The notes below the pieces were generated by a model. The model saw nothing but the letters and a program-made list of their open reading frames with translations. It had not been told where the DNA came from and ran no database searches. The translations under genes and the position numbers were made by a program. Source: a virus. From it: a stretch of DNA of 31,281 nt. The stretch covers positions 1 to 31,281 of IMG/VR virus record IMGVR_UViG_3300042446_000094; one strand, given 5' to 3'. This document shows, piece by piece, positions 1 to 31,281 of this stretch (positions are counted from its first letter, which is position 1; each line of letters opens with the position of its first letter).

Positions 1-127
1 TTAATGCTTTAACCTTTGCTGATTCTATTTCTTTTATTATAGTATCTGATAATGCTTCGTTGTCTAAATATGTTAATGTTATAAAGTCTACATTATCTTG
101 AGTTAATATTTCTTTGTCTACCCAAAA
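1..127. repeat. Terminal direct repeat, left copy (circular junction)
   Basis: These 127 bases are identical to the last 127 bases of the window. The repeat lies inside the large terminase gene and both copies keep the same reading frame, so joining the ends restores one uninterrupted protein. The length equals a common maximum k-mer in de Bruijn assemblers. I therefore read it as an overlap of a circular contig, not as a biological terminal repeat. The unique circle is 31,154 bp. Confidence 0.95.
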
Positions 128-2485: not shown

Positions 2486-3007
2486 TTATAGTTTTATGTT
2501 TTTATTCATTAAGTAAAATGCTTCTAATCTATCTTGTATTAATGTGTGTTGTGTTGTTCCTTTAGTGTTTAACATTAGTGTGTTTAGTTCATCTATTATT
2601 TTGTGTTCGTATCTTGGTTTTTCTATTTGTTCTTTTAGTTCTCTTTTAAGATTAAAGTTTTCTAATGTAAGTTTATGTATTTCGTGTTTTGCTTTTTCTA
2701 TATCTGAAAGTTCTTTTAGTTCTGTTTCATCCATTGTAAAGTAACTTAGTACACTTGCTTTAAATCTTTTTAATTCAGGATTATATTCTTCATACATCTT
2801 ATAATTCTTTAAAGCATGAATAACTGTAGCATGATTTAATTCTATACTATCTCCTATTGACTGTAGTGTTTTGTTTGGTTTTAATTCTTTTAGTATATTA
2901 CAATATAGTGAACGTAATTCAATAACTTCTCTTTTACGTGTTCTTACTTCTATATCTGTATTTGTTTCTTGCTTAATTATTTCTTTTAATCTTTGTGTAA
3001 TTTCCAT
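2486..3007 (-). CDS. DnaA domain-IV-like replication/DNA-binding protein
   Basis: A 173-residue protein whose first half matches the DNA-binding domain IV of DnaA: RKREVIELRSLY, a TLQSIGDSI turn and the signature-like NHATVIHALKNY (residues 58-69), comparable to DHTTVLHA in DnaA. The AAA+ ATPase domain is absent. The second half (about residues 90-170) is a predicted coiled coil. It could recognise DnaA-box-like sites to recruit or compete with host DnaA, or act as a regulator. It sits 2 bp downstream of the GIY-YIG/MazG gene. Confidence 0.78.
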   Translation of the reverse strand: MEITQRLKEIIKQETNTDIEVRTRKREVIELRSLYCNILKELKPNKTLQSIGDSIELNHATVIHALKNYKMYEEYNPELKRFKASVLSYFTMDETELKELSDIEKAKHEIHKLTLENFNLKRELKEQIEKPRYEHKIIDELNTLMLNTKGTTQHTLIQDRLEAFYLMNKNIKL

Positions 3008-3009
3008 TA

Positions 3010-3765
3010 TTATTTATCTTTTATAAATGTTCCATTCTCCATTTTACCTGTTCTTTTTGCTATTACATTATAAGCGCTATTAATACAATCTTCTATATTA
3101 TATCCTGCTAACTTAGATAGATTAGTTAATACTACTACACAATCACCAATAGCATCTATTATTTCTTCTTTATCGTTATTTAATAAAGCTTTTGCTAATT
3201 CACCTGATTCTTCTTGTAGTTTTATATATTGAGTCTTTACATCACCTTTATCAAATATTCCTTTTTCTTTAGCCCAAGTTCTAATATTACTAAATATTTC
3301 TAATTCAGTTGATTCAACAGGTTTTAAATAATTTTGTAATGCTCCAATATAAATAAACCTTTCTTTATTATGTGCTGAAGATACGTTATTTGATTTACAC
3401 CATTCTATAGTTCTATTGTCAAACTCTATATGACTACCATCTAATAGTTGTACTAACATAGGAAATTTATATCCTGTTAAATGTAAATCATCTGTTCCTT
3501 TAAATGTAATTGTTCTTAATGTTACGTGAATTGTTTTGTCCATTGTTTTTTTGTTTTTATTAATCATTAATTGTAAGTATGAATTTTTATCTTTTTTGTA
3601 ATTATATACTTCTTGAAAATGTATTTCTAATCTTGAAGCGTGTGATATATTATCTGTTGATGCAAGTATATCATATTCTTTATAACCTTGTATTTGTTCA
3701 ACACGTCTTTTTAAATCATTCGTGCAACCTACTTTAACTCCTTTAATATGATATATGTAATACAT
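3010..3765 (-). CDS. GIY-YIG-like / MazG-like fusion protein
   Basis: A 251-residue two-domain protein. Residues 1-65 resemble a GIY-YIG nuclease core: YYIYHIKG, VKVGCTNDLKRR with Arg20, and Glu47 in RLEIHF as candidate metal ligand. Residues 155-251 resemble MazG/all-alpha NTP pyrophosphatases: EESGE (185-189) gives the EExxE motif, and EIIDAIGD (201-208) the second acidic motif. Residues 75-150 are unassigned. MazG-type enzymes split NTPs or dNTPs to monophosphates. T4-type dCTPase belongs to the same broad superfamily, so a dNTP clean-up role in the modification pathway is possible. Confidence 0.75.
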   Translation of the reverse strand: MYYIYHIKGVKVGCTNDLKRRVEQIQGYKEYDILASTDNISHASRLEIHFQEVYNYKKDKNSYLQLMINKNKKTMDKTIHVTLRTITFKGTDDLHLTGYKFPMLVQLLDGSHIEFDNRTIEWCKSNNVSSAHNKERFIYIGALQNYLKPVESTELEIFSNIRTWAKEKGIFDKGDVKTQYIKLQEESGELAKALLNNDKEEIIDAIGDCVVVLTNLSKLAGYNIEDCINSAYNVIAKRTGKMENGTFIKDK

Positions 3766-3767
3766 AG

Positions 3768-3992
3768 TTAAATTTTTCTACCACAAAGAGGGTATATATA
3801 TGAATGATATTGAGTACCTTTTTTTATTACTTTATTATTTTTAAATTTAATATCCTCATCAGCTACACTATCTTTTCTACTATAGTAACCAATAGAATCT
3901 CTATCATTTTCAACAACAAGTATACTTCCAACATACTTATTATTAACGTGATACTCAATAAAAAATCCTAAATCTTCAAATACTTGTCTCAT
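3768..3992 (-). CDS. Small protein, function unknown (first gene of a promoter D unit)
   Basis: A 74-residue protein (MRQVFEDLGFFIEYHVNNKY...) with no recognised domain. It has mixed beta/charged composition, one Cys near the end and no membrane segment. It is the first gene after the TATATTTG promoter at 4013-4020, with an A/C-rich leader of about 20 nt and no Shine-Dalgarno sequence. It is followed after 2 bp by the GIY-YIG/MazG gene. Confidence 0.72.
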   Translation of the reverse strand: MRQVFEDLGFFIEYHVNNKYVGSILVVENDRDSIGYYSRKDSVADEDIKFKNNKVIKKGTQYHSYIYPLCGRKI

Positions 3993-4012
3993 GGTTGTTT
4001 GTTTTTGTTATA

Positions 4013-4073
4013 CAAATATACTTATTAATTTTATTTTATTTACAAGTTATTTACAATTTAACATAAATTTAAC
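4013..4073 (-). promoter_or_regulatory. Promoter D with phased GTTAAA pair
   Basis: On the minus strand a TATATTTG box (4013-4020, matching Bacteroidota TAnnTTTG) stands about 20 bp before the ATG at 3992. Upstream are two GTTAAA boxes (4057-4062 and 4068-4073) whose starts are 11 bp apart. The nearer ends 36 bp before the box. The far copy overlaps the stop codon of the thymidylate-synthase-like gene. The same pair occurs at three other promoters, so it is probably a regulator binding site. Confidence 0.78.
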
Positions 4074-4716
4074 ACTTTTTATTATAGTGTCTTTCATATA
4101 TATGTAAGTTTTGAGCGTAATGAGTATAGAATCCTTGTTCTACATTTAAAGATTTACAAACTAATTTATGTAATTGTAAAAATGTATAAGCATCATTGCA
4201 GAATCCAAACCATAAGTCATTGCTTCTCATTAATACTGTCATATGTAACTTACTTGAATCAGGTGTAAAATAGAATTGAATTGATAGTGTGCAAGGAGTA
4301 TCTTTAGAATACTCAGAGTGTTCCTTTCCATCGTAGATAGATATTAATGCACGACGAGAATATTTGTCCCTCTGAAGTTCTTTAATTACATATTCTAATT
4401 GATTGTTTCTACTCCATTGCCAACCATAGTTTGAGTTAACATAACCACGTTCATCCATATGATTATACCAAATCTTTGCTACTTTAGCTATTTCAACAGC
4501 GCTTCTATCTTTACTTAAATACCATTCCCATTCTTTTTCAGCGTAATCTAATTTAAAGTTTCTAAATTCAGATCTAACTATTGATTCAGATGTATCTAAT
4601 ATAGTAAACATTTGATTGTATAATGCTTTAGTACCTGTTTCTTCTTGTGCTACTTGACTATCTAACTTTTCGTAGTAATATTCAAATGCTTCTGTTATTG
4701 TTTTAAATTGCCACAT
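4069..4716 (-). CDS. Thymidylate synthase / dNMP hydroxymethyltransferase homologue
   Basis: This 215-residue protein belongs to the ThyA superfamily. Visible motifs are NYGWQW (96-101, cf. YGxxW), SRRAL (120-124, phosphate-binding Arg pair), DTPC with Cys142 as catalytic nucleophile, MRSND (163-167), and LHIYERH (205-210 region). The residue four after Gly171, equivalent by spacing to E. coli TS Asn177, is Asp175. Asp at this site is typical of dCMP hydroxymethylases. It may therefore make 5-hydroxymethyl-dCMP rather than dTMP. It is shorter than cellular TS (about 264). It lies beside a glycosyltransferase, supporting a DNA-modification role. Confidence 0.8.
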   Translation of the reverse strand: MWQFKTITEAFEYYYEKLDSQVAQEETGTKALYNQMFTILDTSESIVRSEFRNFKLDYAEKEWEWYLSKDRSAVEIAKVAKIWYNHMDERGYVNSNYGWQWSRNNQLEYVIKELQRDKYSRRALISIYDGKEHSEYSKDTPCTLSIQFYFTPDSSKLHMTVLMRSNDLWFGFCNDAYTFLQLHKLVCKSLNVEQGFYTHYAQNLHIYERHYNKKC

Positions 4717-4871
4717 ATGTTTTCTTTTTTTATAGGATATTTATATCCTTGTTTGTCTTCAAATAAATAAACTTTTGTTCCTTCGTATAATATTTCTGTT
4801 CCTTTAAATTTAGCATACATAGTTTCACCAGCAAATTTAAAATAATATTTGTTATCTATTACTAATTTCAT
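4695..4871 (-). CDS. 58-residue small protein between modification genes
   Basis: This short ORF (MKLVIDNKYYFKFAGETMYA..., ending NICGNLKQ) looks beta-rich with alternating hydrophobic residues. It fills the gap between the glycosyltransferase and the thymidylate-synthase homologue, overlapping the first by 20 nt and the second by 22 nt. Without it there would be a 135-bp hole in an otherwise gapless operon. Function unknown; the location suggests it may assist one of the neighbouring enzymes. Confidence 0.6.
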   Translation of the reverse strand: MKLVIDNKYYFKFAGETMYAKFKGTEILYEGTKVYLFEDKQGYKYPIKKENICGNLKQ

Positions 4872-5886
4872 CTATTATTTCTTTTAATCTATTATCAAAC
4901 TTTTCTTTATTCCAAGAATAAGAAAATATAGCTTTTCTTTGTTCTAATGCTACTTCAGTTAATTCGTTTTCATTTAATTGTTCAATATATTTATAAGGTA
5001 AACCTAAAGCCTTTAAATCATTGTAAGAAGTTATAATTATAGATTTTTGTAAAGCAGCATAAATATATCTAATTCTAAACCAACCACTACCTGAGTGTGG
5101 ATATTCAGGACAAAGTATTCCCCAATATTTACCACATTCATTATAAACATCTGTTTCTGTTTCTAATTTAATAGAATCTTTTATTGATTTAGCTCCATAG
5201 TAAGTAGTTTTCCATGCAAATCCTTTTTTCTTTACCCAACCACTATGGTCTACTAAAGAAGCTAACATGTATTTTCTTTCTTTTATTTGTTGTTCTGGTC
5301 TTAAATTTATATTCCAATTTTCTAAAACATAAGGAGTAAGATCTAAGTTATAAATATTTTTTGATTTAATTATCTTTCTAACTATATCTTTATTACCCCA
5401 ATCAAATGCTGGAATTAAAGAATCATAAAAACCTTTACTTAATTTGAATATAACTTCTTTAACTATATTAATATCAAATGATTCATTGTTAACTCCACTA
5501 TAAAAATAATCACCATTACTCCATTTTTTACTTATAGATTTTTCTAATATACCTGGTTTAAGCATTGTTTCAAATGATTTCATATTAGAATCTATTTTCC
5601 AATCTTCATAAAATACTAAACATTTTTTTACTTTATGTAAAGCATATAAAGAATTAAATATATATTTTGAATAATTACTACTACCAAAACATCCTACACC
5701 TACTATAGCTAAATCGTATTCTGATAAATCATCATCCCATTTTATTTCTTTTCTATCTACTATATAGCCTTGTTTTCTTAAAGATTCACATATAATAGTA
5801 CTATCATCTATTCTTTTAACTCTTGCTCTTTGCCAAGCTAAATCATCTGTTTGTTTAGATGTGCTTCCTGTAAATAAAATCCTCAT
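4852..5886 (-). CDS. Putative GT-B-type glycosyltransferase
   Basis: A 344-residue protein with an N-terminal Rossmann-like strand (MRILFTGSTS), a second alpha/beta segment DLAIVGVGCFG (58-68), and a C-terminal part containing PEYPHSGSGWFRIRYIYAA (260-278), then IIITSYNDLKALG. The two-lobed arrangement and late Gly/Arg-rich loop fit GT-B sugar transferases. No signal peptide. Its neighbour is a dNMP hydroxymethylase-like enzyme, so the attractive reading is transfer of a sugar to hydroxymethylated bases in phage DNA. Other acceptors, such as surface glycans, cannot be excluded. The gene starts 1 bp after the DUF6378-like gene. Confidence 0.65.
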   Translation of the reverse strand: MRILFTGSTSKQTDDLAWQRARVKRIDDSTIICESLRKQGYIVDRKEIKWDDDLSEYDLAIVGVGCFGSSNYSKYIFNSLYALHKVKKCLVFYEDWKIDSNMKSFETMLKPGILEKSISKKWSNGDYFYSGVNNESFDINIVKEVIFKLSKGFYDSLIPAFDWGNKDIVRKIIKSKNIYNLDLTPYVLENWNINLRPEQQIKERKYMLASLVDHSGWVKKKGFAWKTTYYGAKSIKDSIKLETETDVYNECGKYWGILCPEYPHSGSGWFRIRYIYAALQKSIIITSYNDLKALGLPYKYIEQLNENELTEVALEQRKAIFSYSWNKEKFDNRLKEIIDEISNR

Positions 5887-5887
5887 A

Positions 5888-6148
5888 CTACTTACTATTA
5901 TAGTTATTTAAACTTCCTAAATAAGCTACTGCGTCAAGTAAATTATCTTCTTTATGATTATAAGATTGTCTTGACAACTTTAAAGCTACAAGACACATGT
6001 ATATATCTTGAGCAGTTAATTGTTTACCTGTGCAACCTGAAGCTATCATAGCAGCGCGTTCCATACCTTCTTCAAATGGTCCATACATTCTTTCTTTTTC
6101 TTCAGAACGTAAATTAATAATCTTGTTTGCTTCTTCTAAAATGTTCAT
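5888..6148 (-). CDS. DUF6378-like protein
   Basis: An 86-residue helical protein. The pattern Y-G-P-x4-GM (residues 22-29), ALKLSRQ (residues 55-61) and DNLLDAVAYLG (67-77) matches a widespread phage family of unknown function (DUF6378, from memory). The DNLxDAxGY motif resembles metal-binding Asp/Glu patterns of all-alpha nucleotide hydrolases, so a nucleotide-related role is possible but unproven. It directly precedes the glycosyltransferase gene. Its 47-bp leader holds A/C-rich sequence and a weak TATATTTA box. Confidence 0.72.
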   Translation of the reverse strand: MNILEEANKIINLRSEEKERMYGPFEEGMERAAMIASGCTGKQLTAQDIYMCLVALKLSRQSYNHKEDNLLDAVAYLGSLNNYNSK

Positions 6149-10265: not shown

Positions 10266-11108
10266 TTAAAATATATCTTTTAATGGGTCGTAAAAAGCAC
10301 CTTCAACTTGCGGTAAACCAAAACTATTAACTTTAAAACTAAAGTTTTCAAATGGAGCATTACGTGAACGTTTGCAAGATACTGTTACTAATGATTTGTT
10401 TACTGTGTTTAATTCTAATTGTATTTGTGTTTCTGCTTTCTTTTCTAAAAACGATCCTAAATGACCTGTTGGTTTATCTGATCCGAAGTTTGAGTGGATA
10501 ACTGTTACTATATGACAATTTAATTCTTTAGACCATTTCATTAACTTTTGAACTACTGCATTTGATTCTTCAATGTTATTTACATCAGAACATAAATCCG
10601 CAATACCATCTATAATAACTAAACCGATTTCTTTAGATTCTAATTTGTCGTATAGGTAGTATTCTATAAAGTCAACACGTTCTTTAAATGATAATTGTCT
10701 TAATGCTAATGTATGATATCTATCAGTTTTTAAACTTGTCATATCTAATGGTCGTTTAAATACCATTTGAGCGTGAAAGTTACCTTGTTCAGTATCAAAA
10801 TGAATTATATTTTTATTCTCTCTATTTGCTTTTAAATCGCCACAAAATGATTCTAATTTATCAGACAAATAAACTGCTGATAATAAACTTACAAAAAATG
10901 TTTTCTTTGATTTTGGTGGTGCTTGAACAAAACTAAAGTTACCATAAGTTCCTAAAGGTATAGGATATTCTTTTAAACCATCTTTTGTTTCATATGTTTT
11001 AGTTCCAAATGATATTGCAGGTTTAGGATATTCTATTTTTTCTAATGGATTTATAAAGCAATCTTCTTCAAACATTTGCATTAATAGCCTTTGTGCTTCT
11101 GTATCCAT
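10266..11108 (-). CDS. RecA-like (AAA_25/RepA-type) ATPase
   Basis: A 280-residue P-loop protein of the RecA/DnaB-like fold. Walker B is clear: LVIIDGIADL at 163-172, and FDTEQG (104-109) supplies the catalytic Glu region seen in RepA-like ATPases. The Walker A position reads APPKSKKTF (63-71), keeping Lys69-Thr70 but with Lys instead of the usual Gly before it. THLGSFLEKKAETQI-like and HSN elements resemble sensor regions. Its place next to SSB and ERF suggests a replication helicase/loader or recombination ATPase. The gene has a long A/C-rich leader. Confidence 0.78.
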   Translation of the reverse strand: MDTEAQRLLMQMFEEDCFINPLEKIEYPKPAISFGTKTYETKDGLKEYPIPLGTYGNFSFVQAPPKSKKTFFVSLLSAVYLSDKLESFCGDLKANRENKNIIHFDTEQGNFHAQMVFKRPLDMTSLKTDRYHTLALRQLSFKERVDFIEYYLYDKLESKEIGLVIIDGIADLCSDVNNIEESNAVVQKLMKWSKELNCHIVTVIHSNFGSDKPTGHLGSFLEKKAETQIQLELNTVNKSLVTVSCKRSRNAPFENFSFKVNSFGLPQVEGAFYDPLKDIF

Positions 11109-30565: not shown

Positions 30566-31281
30566 TAGTATATAAAGTAATTACCTTTATTAGGATTCTC
30601 TAATTGACTTGTTATAGCGTATCTCATTGCGTCTATAGCATGATTGTAAGAATCTATTGGCTTATTCATTTTAACTCCTGATTTATCTGTTAACCATATA
30701 TAGTTATTCAATTCATTTATTAAGTTCTTACTTCTTGATGTTACGTATATTTTGTTTTGATTAATTAAATTAATGCCATATAAGATACTGTCTCTACCTT
30801 TACTAACAGGTAATACATTATGACCATAACTATTCAACTCAGCAATTGATTTAGGCTCAGCACAATCAGCGTGTATTATATCATTAACATCATTTGCTTT
30901 TAATAGATTAGATATTTCACTATTCAATAAACCTTTCTTATATATTATTTCATCAAATATAAAAGCATCATTGTATTTATACATAGCTACTAAAGATGTT
31001 GGGTCATTACTATAACCAAAGTCCATTCCATAACATAAAATTCTTGCTTCTAAAGGTAGGTTTATTTCGTTCCAATCTGTTATACATACACCTTCTAAAC
31101 TTCCTGTTTGTCCAAGTCCATATACTTGCCACCAATTAGCCCAATAAGAAGATGTTAATGCTTTAACCTTTGCTGATTCTATTTCTTTTATTATAGTATC
31201 TGATAATGCTTCGTTGTCTAAATATGTTAATGTTATAAAGTCTACATTATCTTGAGTTAATATTTCTTTGTCTACCCAAAA
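30565..31281 (-). CDS. terL: Large terminase subunit, C-terminal nuclease part (split by window end)
   Basis: This fragment of 238 residues continues the frame that begins at 577 through the circular junction; residues up to 31155 repeat those at the left end. It has ATPase-nuclease linker SSYWANWWQVYGLGQTGSL, then an RNase H-fold nuclease: MDFGYSNDP with the first Asp, HADCAEPK with the second, and DSYNHAIDAMRYA with the last acidic residue. The nuclease cuts concatemers at packaging. Reading only from the ATG at 31026 would give a truncated, misleading ORF. Confidence 0.93.
   Translation of the reverse strand, partial: FWVDKEILTQDNVDFITLTYLDNEALSDTIIKEIESAKVKALTSSYWANWWQVYGLGQTGSLEGVCITDWNEINLPLEARILCYGMDFGYSNDPTSLVAMYKYNDAFIFDEIIYKKGLLNSEISNLLKANDVNDIIHADCAEPKSIAELNSYGHNVLPVSKGRDSILYGINLINQNKIYVTSRSKNLINELNNYIWLTDKSGVKMNKPIDSYNHAIDAMRYAITSQLENPNKGNYFIY
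31155..31281. repeat. Terminal direct repeat, right copy (circular junction)
   Basis: Exact copy of bases 1-127. See the left copy: both are inside terL in the same frame, so the molecule closes into a circle of 31,154 bp. No evidence in the sequence separates a cos, pac or circular-permutation strategy. Confidence 0.95.

What the first reader, a model, noticed from the sequence alone, without database searches (positions are those of the whole stretch)
3010..6148. Predicted DNA hypermodification cassette
A ThyA-type dNMP hydroxymethylase candidate, a GT-B-like glycosyltransferase, a DUF6378-like protein, a 58-residue ORF between them and a MazG-like pyrophosphatase occupy 3.1 kb. In T4 the analogous logic is dCMP hydroxymethylation, removal of dCTP by a pyrophosphatase, and glucosylation. 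A compact version in a 31-kb phage would be unusual and would protect against host restriction.
Basis: inference. Interest (0 to 1): 0.72.

Follow-up and report, generated by a model that had tools for sequence, protein, structure and literature searches.

The report
Swappable DNA-sugar-coating gene cassette
This 31-kb bacterial virus carries a compact set of genes that very probably replaces cytosine with a hydroxymethylated form and then attaches a sugar to it, and near-identical sister viruses carry a different sugar-attaching enzyme in exactly the same slot, which makes it a natural experiment in how viruses change the armour on their DNA.

Summary
The ThyA-like protein is a T4-type dCMP hydroxymethylase by sequence: best solved match T4 gp42, with the dCMP-specifying Asp (D175 = T4 D179), the nucleophilic Cys and Glu60 invariant in 71/71 sequences. 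The 344-residue protein matches no curated family, but its confident AlphaFold model is closest to T4 DNA beta-glucosyltransferase (Z 18.4 over 299 residues). A MazG-type pyrophosphatase adjoins the hydroxymethylase in 68 of 69 loci. The strongest evidence is a natural swap: sister phages with 95-99% identical flanking DNA carry a T4 alpha-glucosyltransferase homologue, or another unrelated enzyme, in place of this glycosyltransferase, exchanged at the start codon; other clade members carry a T4 beta-glucosyltransferase homologue there. The record is a complete genome of 31,154 bp from a clade of about 30-37 kb, probably Bacteroidota, phages. No large ORF suggests a phage DNA polymerase, so the host replisome presumably incorporates the modified nucleotide. 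The sugar, its linkage and the extent of modification are unknown; the role of DUF6378 is unresolved. Verdict: predicted glycosylated 5-hydroxymethylcytosine DNA; a new variant of the T4 kind with a likely new DNA-glycosyltransferase family and an exchangeable tailoring slot.

The parts
5888..6148 (-). DUF6378 protein, 86 aa, all-helical, function unknown; first gene of the conserved block
   Evidence: Pfam PF19905 E 8e-13 above its cut-off; present in 57 of 62 ThyA loci with room; AlphaFold pLDDT 92, no PDB fold match above Z 4.6
4852..5886 (-). Predicted DNA glycosyltransferase, 344 aa, GT-B fold; occupies the exchangeable tailoring slot
   Evidence: No Pfam hit; PHROG 14998 (unknown function) E 1e-7; AlphaFold pLDDT 94.4; best fold T4 BGT, Foldseek E 1.3e-5, VIA Z 18.4, rmsd 4.3, 299 residues; replaced by a T4 AGT homologue in the near-identical phage L096
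4695..4871 (-). 58-aa ORF of unknown function between glycosyltransferase and hydroxymethylase; its start overlaps the 3' end of the slot gene
   Evidence: Conserved in 40 of 68 loci regardless of the slot enzyme; junction sequences
4069..4716 (-). Predicted dCMP hydroxymethylase, 215 aa, thymidylate synthase superfamily, T4 gp42 type
   Evidence: Best solved match T4 dCMP hydroxymethylase E 2e-17, ahead of every thymidylate synthase; C142, E62, D139, T143, D175 invariant in 71 of 71; Glu60 equivalent present, unlike RB69 5-hydroxy-dCMP synthase
3768..3992 (-). 74-aa ORF, unknown function, often linked
   Evidence: Present in 45 of 68 loci
3010..3765 (-). GIY-YIG/T5orf172-like domain (about residues 9-60) fused to a MazG-type nucleotide pyrophosphatase (about residues 156-250); predicted dCTP-removing enzyme
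   Evidence: PF03819 and PF01503 above cut-off, T5orf172 above cut-off; PHROG 1992 E 6e-31; EExxE...ExxD...D motif invariant or nearly so in 68 relatives; adjoins the hydroxymethylase in 68 of 69 loci
1..127 (.). Direct terminal repeat, identical to 31155-31281, marking a complete circular or circularly permuted genome

Best explanation
The cassette hypermodifies the phage's cytosine. (1) The MazG domain hydrolyses dCTP, starving replication of normal cytosine and supplying dCMP (inferred). (2) The ThyA-type enzyme adds a hydroxymethyl group to C5 of dCMP using methylene-tetrahydrofolate (strongly supported by active-site residues). (3) Host kinases and the host replicative polymerase, since no phage polymerase or nucleotide kinase was recognised, put 5-hydroxymethyl-dCTP into phage DNA (inferred). 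(4) The 344-aa GT-B enzyme transfers a sugar from a host nucleotide-sugar onto 5-hydroxymethylcytosine in DNA, as T4 alpha- and beta-glucosyltransferases do (strongly supported by fold and by in-place exchange with homologues of those enzymes). The result should protect the DNA from restriction enzymes and some CRISPR systems. The glycosyltransferase is the exchangeable part: phages swap it as a unit while the rest stays constant, presumably to change which modification-dependent defences can recognise them (inferred).
For: Hydroxymethylase: best PDB match is T4 gp42. The Asp that switches thymidylate synthases from dUMP to dCMP is invariant in 71 of 71; PMC8670742 reports that this position and position 147 are the two most associated with modified cytosine. 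Glycosyltransferase: T4 BGT is the top fold. Slot exchange: window versus L096 is 98.6% identical up to the glycosyltransferase start codon, unalignable through the gene, then 96.2% identical; the L096 gene is a T4 AGT homologue (PF11440 E 1e-16, PDB 1xv5 E 2e-25). 21 loci carry a BGT-like enzyme in the slot (PHROG 7922 E 6e-19; hhalign to T4 BGT 98.9%; T4 residues E22, D100, R191, R195, R269, E272 all kept). Linkage: MazG in 68 of 69 loci. Genome-wide co-occurrence: 20 of 21 other phage records with this glycosyltransferase family also carry ThyA, and all 20 copies have the Asp/Thr dCMP-type pair.
Against: No modified base has been measured; the phage is known only from metagenomic sequence. 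The glycosyltransferase shows no sequence-profile similarity to AGT, BGT or RB69 ORF003c, and many cellular GT-B enzymes score Z 14-17 against the model, so fold alone does not prove a DNA acceptor. The dCTP specificity of the MazG domain is untested. No kinase for 5-hydroxymethyl-dCMP was found, although T4 encodes one (gene 1, own knowledge).
Confidence: 0.87

Rival explanations
1. The glycosyltransferase is a cell-surface (LPS or exopolysaccharide) enzyme that alters the host envelope, and its place beside the hydroxymethylase is incidental.
For: Its GT-B fold also resembles many cellular enzymes, such as SenB at Z 17 and glycogen synthases at Z 15. Some phages do carry surface-modifying glycosyltransferases (PMC7029224).
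Against: The slot is exchanged one-for-one with T4 AGT and BGT homologues between related and in part near-identical phages. T4 BGT is the top fold match. 20 of 21 other carriers also have a dCMP-type ThyA. A limited pattern scan of 84,980 prokaryote genomes found no close cellular relative.
Confidence: 0.05
2. The ThyA-like enzyme makes a different 5-substituted dCMP: 5-methyl-dCMP, as in phage XP12, or 5-hydroxy-dCMP, as in RB69, so that the sugar, if any, is attached directly to the ring.
For: N-to-D mutants of canonical thymidylate synthase make 5-methyl-dCMP (PMC8670742). RB69-type phages use a homologue that makes 5-hydroxy-dCMP (PMC13390438).
Against: The window enzyme keeps the Glu60 equivalent needed for methylene-THF activation (71 of 71); RB69 lacks it in the alignment. 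It matches T4 gp42 better than RB69 (33% versus 26% identity). It ends shortly after the H-x-Y motif, so it lacks the C-terminal lid of thymidylate synthases. AGT and BGT homologues in the same slot imply a 5-hydroxymethyl acceptor in sister phages.
Confidence: 0.07
3. The ThyA-like and MazG proteins are ordinary nucleotide-pool enzymes (thymidylate supply and house-cleaning), and phage DNA is unmodified.
For: ThyA and MazG homologues are common in phages generally (ThyA matched 1724 phage records).
Against: The Asp/Thr dCMP signature is invariant; canonical thymidylate synthases mostly have Asn there. The adjoining gene is exchanged with DNA-glucosyltransferase homologues, and the association is very tight.
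Confidence: 0.03

Closest known systems
T4 dCMP hydroxymethylase (gp42)
   Same: Thymidylate synthase superfamily; same catalytic Cys, Glu, Asp145 and Asp179 equivalents; adjoins a glucosyltransferase gene in T4 as well
   Different: Only about 33% identical and shorter (215 versus 246 residues); in a 31-kb genome in which no phage polymerase or dNMP kinase was recognised
T4 DNA beta-glucosyltransferase (b-gt, PF09198)
   Same: Closest solved fold over nearly the whole chain; a weak profile alignment places the invariant D95 opposite catalytic D100
   Different: No detectable sequence-family match; carries its own motif (GSGW[FW]RxR); sugar and linkage unknown; PHROG 14998 family of unknown function
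T4 DNA alpha-glucosyltransferase (a-gt, PF11440)
   Same: Its homologue replaces this gene exactly in sister phage L096; GT-B fold, Z 14.9
   Different: Unrelated in sequence to the window enzyme
Glycosyltransferase exchange at the T-even b-gt locus (T4 beta-GT versus TAGT; PMC13390438)
   Same: Different DNA glycosyltransferases at one syntenic position among related phages
   Different: Here at least four unrelated enzyme classes, including non-GT sets, exchange at the start codon, several times in 95-99% identical backgrounds, in small phages
MetaGPA ThyA-Asp plus carbamoyltransferase modules (PMC8670742)
   Same: dCMP-type ThyA plus pyrophosphatase plus a tailoring enzyme, found from metagenomes
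   Different: The tailoring step there is carbamoylation, here predicted glycosylation

Membership tests
T4-type dCMP hydroxymethylase | Homology to the thymidylate synthase superfamily with T4 gp42 as nearest solved relative | tested here: met
T4-type dCMP hydroxymethylase | Catalytic Cys148, Glu60 and dCMP-specifying Asp179 equivalents | tested here: met
   C142, E62, D175 invariant in 71 of 71 sequences; alignment to T4 gp42; roles from PMC6400193
T4-type dCMP hydroxymethylase | Product is 5-hydroxymethyl-dCMP | not testable with these tools
   Needs an enzyme assay
RB69-type 5-hydroxy-dCMP synthase | RB69 lacks the Glu60 equivalent (feature read from this alignment, not from the literature) | tested here: not met
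   The window keeps the Glu, RB69 does not
T4 beta-glucosyltransferase family PF09198 | Match to the curated sequence profile | tested here: not met
   No Pfam match at E 1 or better; hhalign to T4 BGT 5.7% probability
T4 beta-glucosyltransferase family PF09198 | GT-B fold with closest similarity to BGT | tested here: met
   Foldseek ranks 1-4; VIA ranks 1-4, best Z 18.4, 299 residues
T4 beta-glucosyltransferase family PF09198 | Catalytic Asp100 equivalent | tested here: inconclusive
   Invariant D95 aligns with it in a low-probability profile alignment; no residue-level superposition was available
T4 alpha-glucosyltransferase family PF11440 | Match to the curated sequence profile | tested here: not met
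   the L096 slot protein does match
DNA glycosyltransferase (functional class) | Transfers a sugar to 5hmC in DNA | not testable with these tools
   Inferred from slot exchange and co-occurrence
MazG / all-alpha NTP pyrophosphatase | EExxE...ExxD metal-binding motif | tested here: met
   E185, E186, E189, D204, D208 invariant in 68 relatives; Pfam above cut-off
MazG / all-alpha NTP pyrophosphatase | dCTP specificity, as in T4 gp56 | not testable with these tools
   Inferred from linkage only
DUF6378 | Match to PF19905 above its cut-off | tested here: met
   48.9 bits versus 27.1

The most novel reading that the evidence does not exclude
The slot is a genuine exchange module: small phages keep a constant 5-hydroxymethylcytosine core and swap the tailoring enzyme (new GT family, AGT, BGT, GT plus UDP-galactopyranose mutase, PLP-enzyme set, methyltransferase) as a single allele, giving near-isogenic phages with chemically different cytosines, including sugars other than glucose (galactofuranose where the mutase is present) and non-sugar decorations not yet described on cytosine.
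Probability: 0.5. Interest if true: 0.88.

Novelty: new variant of a known kind. Interest (0 to 1): 0.74.

Why it matters
Phage DNA glucosylation is known mainly from large T4-like phages, and a 2026 survey counted only AGT, BGT and TAGT homologues (PMC13216743). This finding adds a likely further DNA-glycosyltransferase family. It places the pathway in a 31-kb genome that appears to use the host polymerase. It also supplies naturally near-isogenic phages that differ in the tailoring enzyme, so the question of why phages change their DNA decoration becomes directly testable. New DNA glycosyltransferases are also useful reagents for mapping 5hmC.

Tried and rejected
Sequence-profile links of the 344-aa protein to AGT, BGT and RB69 ORF003c: none. 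Solved-structure sequence search for it: none. DUF6378 as a recognisable pyrophosphatase fold: no PDB match above Z 4.6, which leaves it open. A cellular origin of the glycosyltransferase: two alignments were too divergent to search, and a third found no relative in genome contigs (limited to two peptide patterns). UDP-galactopyranose mutase in the window genome or three sister records: none. The GT family or the BGT-like family in the Bacteroides phage with the nearest ThyA: none. I considered a C-terminal QLxLF tail on slot enzymes as a sliding-clamp docking signal. It is strongly enriched (1 of 1348 background ORFs), but in many loci the tail overlaps the start of the 58-aa ORF in another frame, so part of the signal may be a by-product. 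The window enzyme lacks the tail.
Full report
Observation. Family scans give thymidylate synthase, DUF6378 and MazG/PRA-PH above curated cut-offs; the MazG protein also has an N-terminal T5orf172 (GIY-YIG-like) domain. The 344-aa protein has no Pfam match and falls only in PHROG 14998, a family of unknown function.

Genome. The record has an exact 127-nt terminal repeat. Joining the ends at that repeat completes the large terminase gene, so the genome is complete at 31,154 bp, 27.6% G+C. The portal protein is nearest to Nonlabens phage P12024S (35%), and the ThyA-like protein is nearest to Bacteroides phages (48%), which suggests a Bacteroidota host. The only ORFs of 500 residues or more are a portal, a tape-measure-like virion protein, a 721-aa protein of a phage family of unknown function lying among the tail genes, and one 562-aa protein that was not scanned and lies among the structural genes. 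No ORF therefore suggests a phage replicative DNA polymerase. No nucleotide kinase was recognised among the proteins scanned, but not every small ORF was scanned.

Hydroxymethylase. T4 dCMP hydroxymethylase is the best solved match, ahead of all thymidylate synthases. In an alignment of the window protein with 70 others, the Cys nucleophile (C142), Glu60 equivalent (E62), Asp145 equivalent (D139), Thr at E. coli position 147 (T143) and the dCMP-specifying Asp (D175) are invariant. Roles of these residues come from PMC6400193 and PMC8670742. RB69's homologue, reported to make 5-hydroxy-dCMP (PMC13390438), lacks the Glu in the alignment, which argues against that chemistry here. The protein also ends a few residues after the H-x-Y motif and lacks the C-terminal lid that excludes water in thymidylate synthases (established knowledge of the family), consistent with hydroxymethylation rather than methylation.

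Glycosyltransferase. The AlphaFold model from 32 sequences has pLDDT 94.4. T4 BGT takes Foldseek ranks 1-4 (best E 1.3e-5) and VIA ranks 1-4 (Z 18.4, rmsd 4.3, 299 residues); T4 AGT scores Z 14.9. Cellular GT-B enzymes also score highly (Z 14-17), so the fold does not by itself fix the acceptor. Sequence-profile comparison to BGT is weak, but one alignment places the invariant D95 at the catalytic Asp100 position.

The swap. Searches of IMG/VR with the two proteins gave 69 distinct ThyA loci, the window's own included, in which the neighbourhood could be classed. The slot upstream of ThyA holds a BGT-like enzyme (21), the window's GT family (17, of which 2 with an FkbM methyltransferase and 1 with UDP-galactopyranose mutase), an AGT homologue (12), a PLP-enzyme set (11), a 440-aa protein of no known family (3), a class I methyltransferase (3), or nothing recognised (2). 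In a few divergent loci the order differs (for example L033 and L028). Identities rest on Pfam, PHROGs and PDB matches of representatives and, for the BGT-like group, on hhalign to T4 BGT at 98.9% with all six checked T4 active-site residues kept. On the ThyA tree the slot label changes at least 28 times; some of these reflect truncated contigs. Several pairs with identical ThyA proteins have different slot enzymes. At DNA level the window and L096 are 98.6% identical to the start codon of the glycosyltransferase, share nothing detectable through it, and are 96.2% identical from its 3' end on. Four further pairs show the same exact replacement with 95-99% identical flanks (L118/L150, L021/L119, L099/L100, L096/L098). 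This is the strongest evidence that the window enzyme does the same kind of job as T4 AGT and BGT.

Wider co-occurrence. 21 other phage records with this GT family, including Gordonia phages and the Dishui Lake phage DSL-LC01, were searched for ThyA: 20 have it, and all 20 copies carry the dCMP-type Asp and Thr. These records are not all independent lineages. In DSL-LC01 two members flank a UDP-galactopyranose mutase, and a member lies beside one in L139, which suggests that some members use galactofuranose.

MazG and DUF6378. MazG adjoins ThyA in 68 of 69 loci with its metal-binding motif intact; DUF6378 is present in 57 of 62 loci, the 58-aa ORF in 40 of 68 and the 74-aa ORF in 45 of 68. The constant core is therefore hydroxymethylase plus MazG, usually with DUF6378. 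By analogy with T4 gp56 the MazG domain probably removes dCTP; this is inference. DUF6378 gave a confident helical model with no PDB match, so its role is open.

Comparison with the known. The working logic is that of T4. A syntenic exchange of one glycosyltransferase for another is known at the T-even b-gt locus (T4 beta-GT versus TAGT; [quoted passage not shown] What appears new is the likely further GT family, the compact genome, and the start-codon exchange of several unrelated enzyme classes in near-identical backgrounds. The literature search covered open-access papers only.

Shown here: gene content, active-site residues, fold similarity, linkage, DNA-level swaps. Inferred: enzyme activities, dCTP removal, incorporation by the host polymerase, the sugar, and the defence benefit.

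Noticed in passing
L151, L152, L155, L156, L158, L159, L160, L166 upstream of ThyA: A three-gene set (316-aa and 303-aa proteins of unknown function plus a PLP-dependent enzyme, PF00291) replaces the glycosyltransferase beside the same dCMP-type hydroxymethylase; possibly a non-sugar cytosine decoration.
   Followed up: partly
L139:3861-5868 and L013:8992-12137: Members of the window's GT family lie beside a UDP-galactopyranose mutase, suggesting galactofuranose as the sugar in those phages.
   Followed up: partly
C-termini of slot enzymes, e.g. L096:3088-4290, L147:4782-5999, L117:4793-5998, L160:2971-3867; window 4852-4888: Unrelated slot enzymes end in a QLxLF-type tail resembling a beta-clamp binding motif (1 of 1348 background ORFs). 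In many loci it overlaps the start of the 58-aa ORF in another frame. In the window a TAA stop precedes a remnant reading QILF.
   Followed up: partly
L163, L167, L170 upstream of ThyA; L021:5203-5853 and L028:865-1509: Class I or FkbM-type methyltransferases sit in or beside the tailoring slot.
   Followed up: no
L138:4442-5068: Cytidylyltransferase/heptose-adenylyltransferase-like protein directly upstream of a BGT-like enzyme; could supply an activated sugar.
   Followed up: no
window 3010-3765: GIY-YIG/T5orf172-like domain fused to MazG in the window and close relatives; other loci have a stand-alone MazG of about 100 aa.
   Followed up: partly
L034, L059, L069 and similar: Tandem pairs of this GT family (about 400 and 340 aa, or about 345 and 336 aa) with DUF6378 about 1 kb downstream in other phages, some on contigs up to about 115 kb.
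   Followed up: partly
window 10266-11108 and 2486-3007: An AAA ATPase and a protein with a DnaA C-terminal-like helix-turn-helix domain, possibly part of replication initiation using the host replisome.
   Followed up: no
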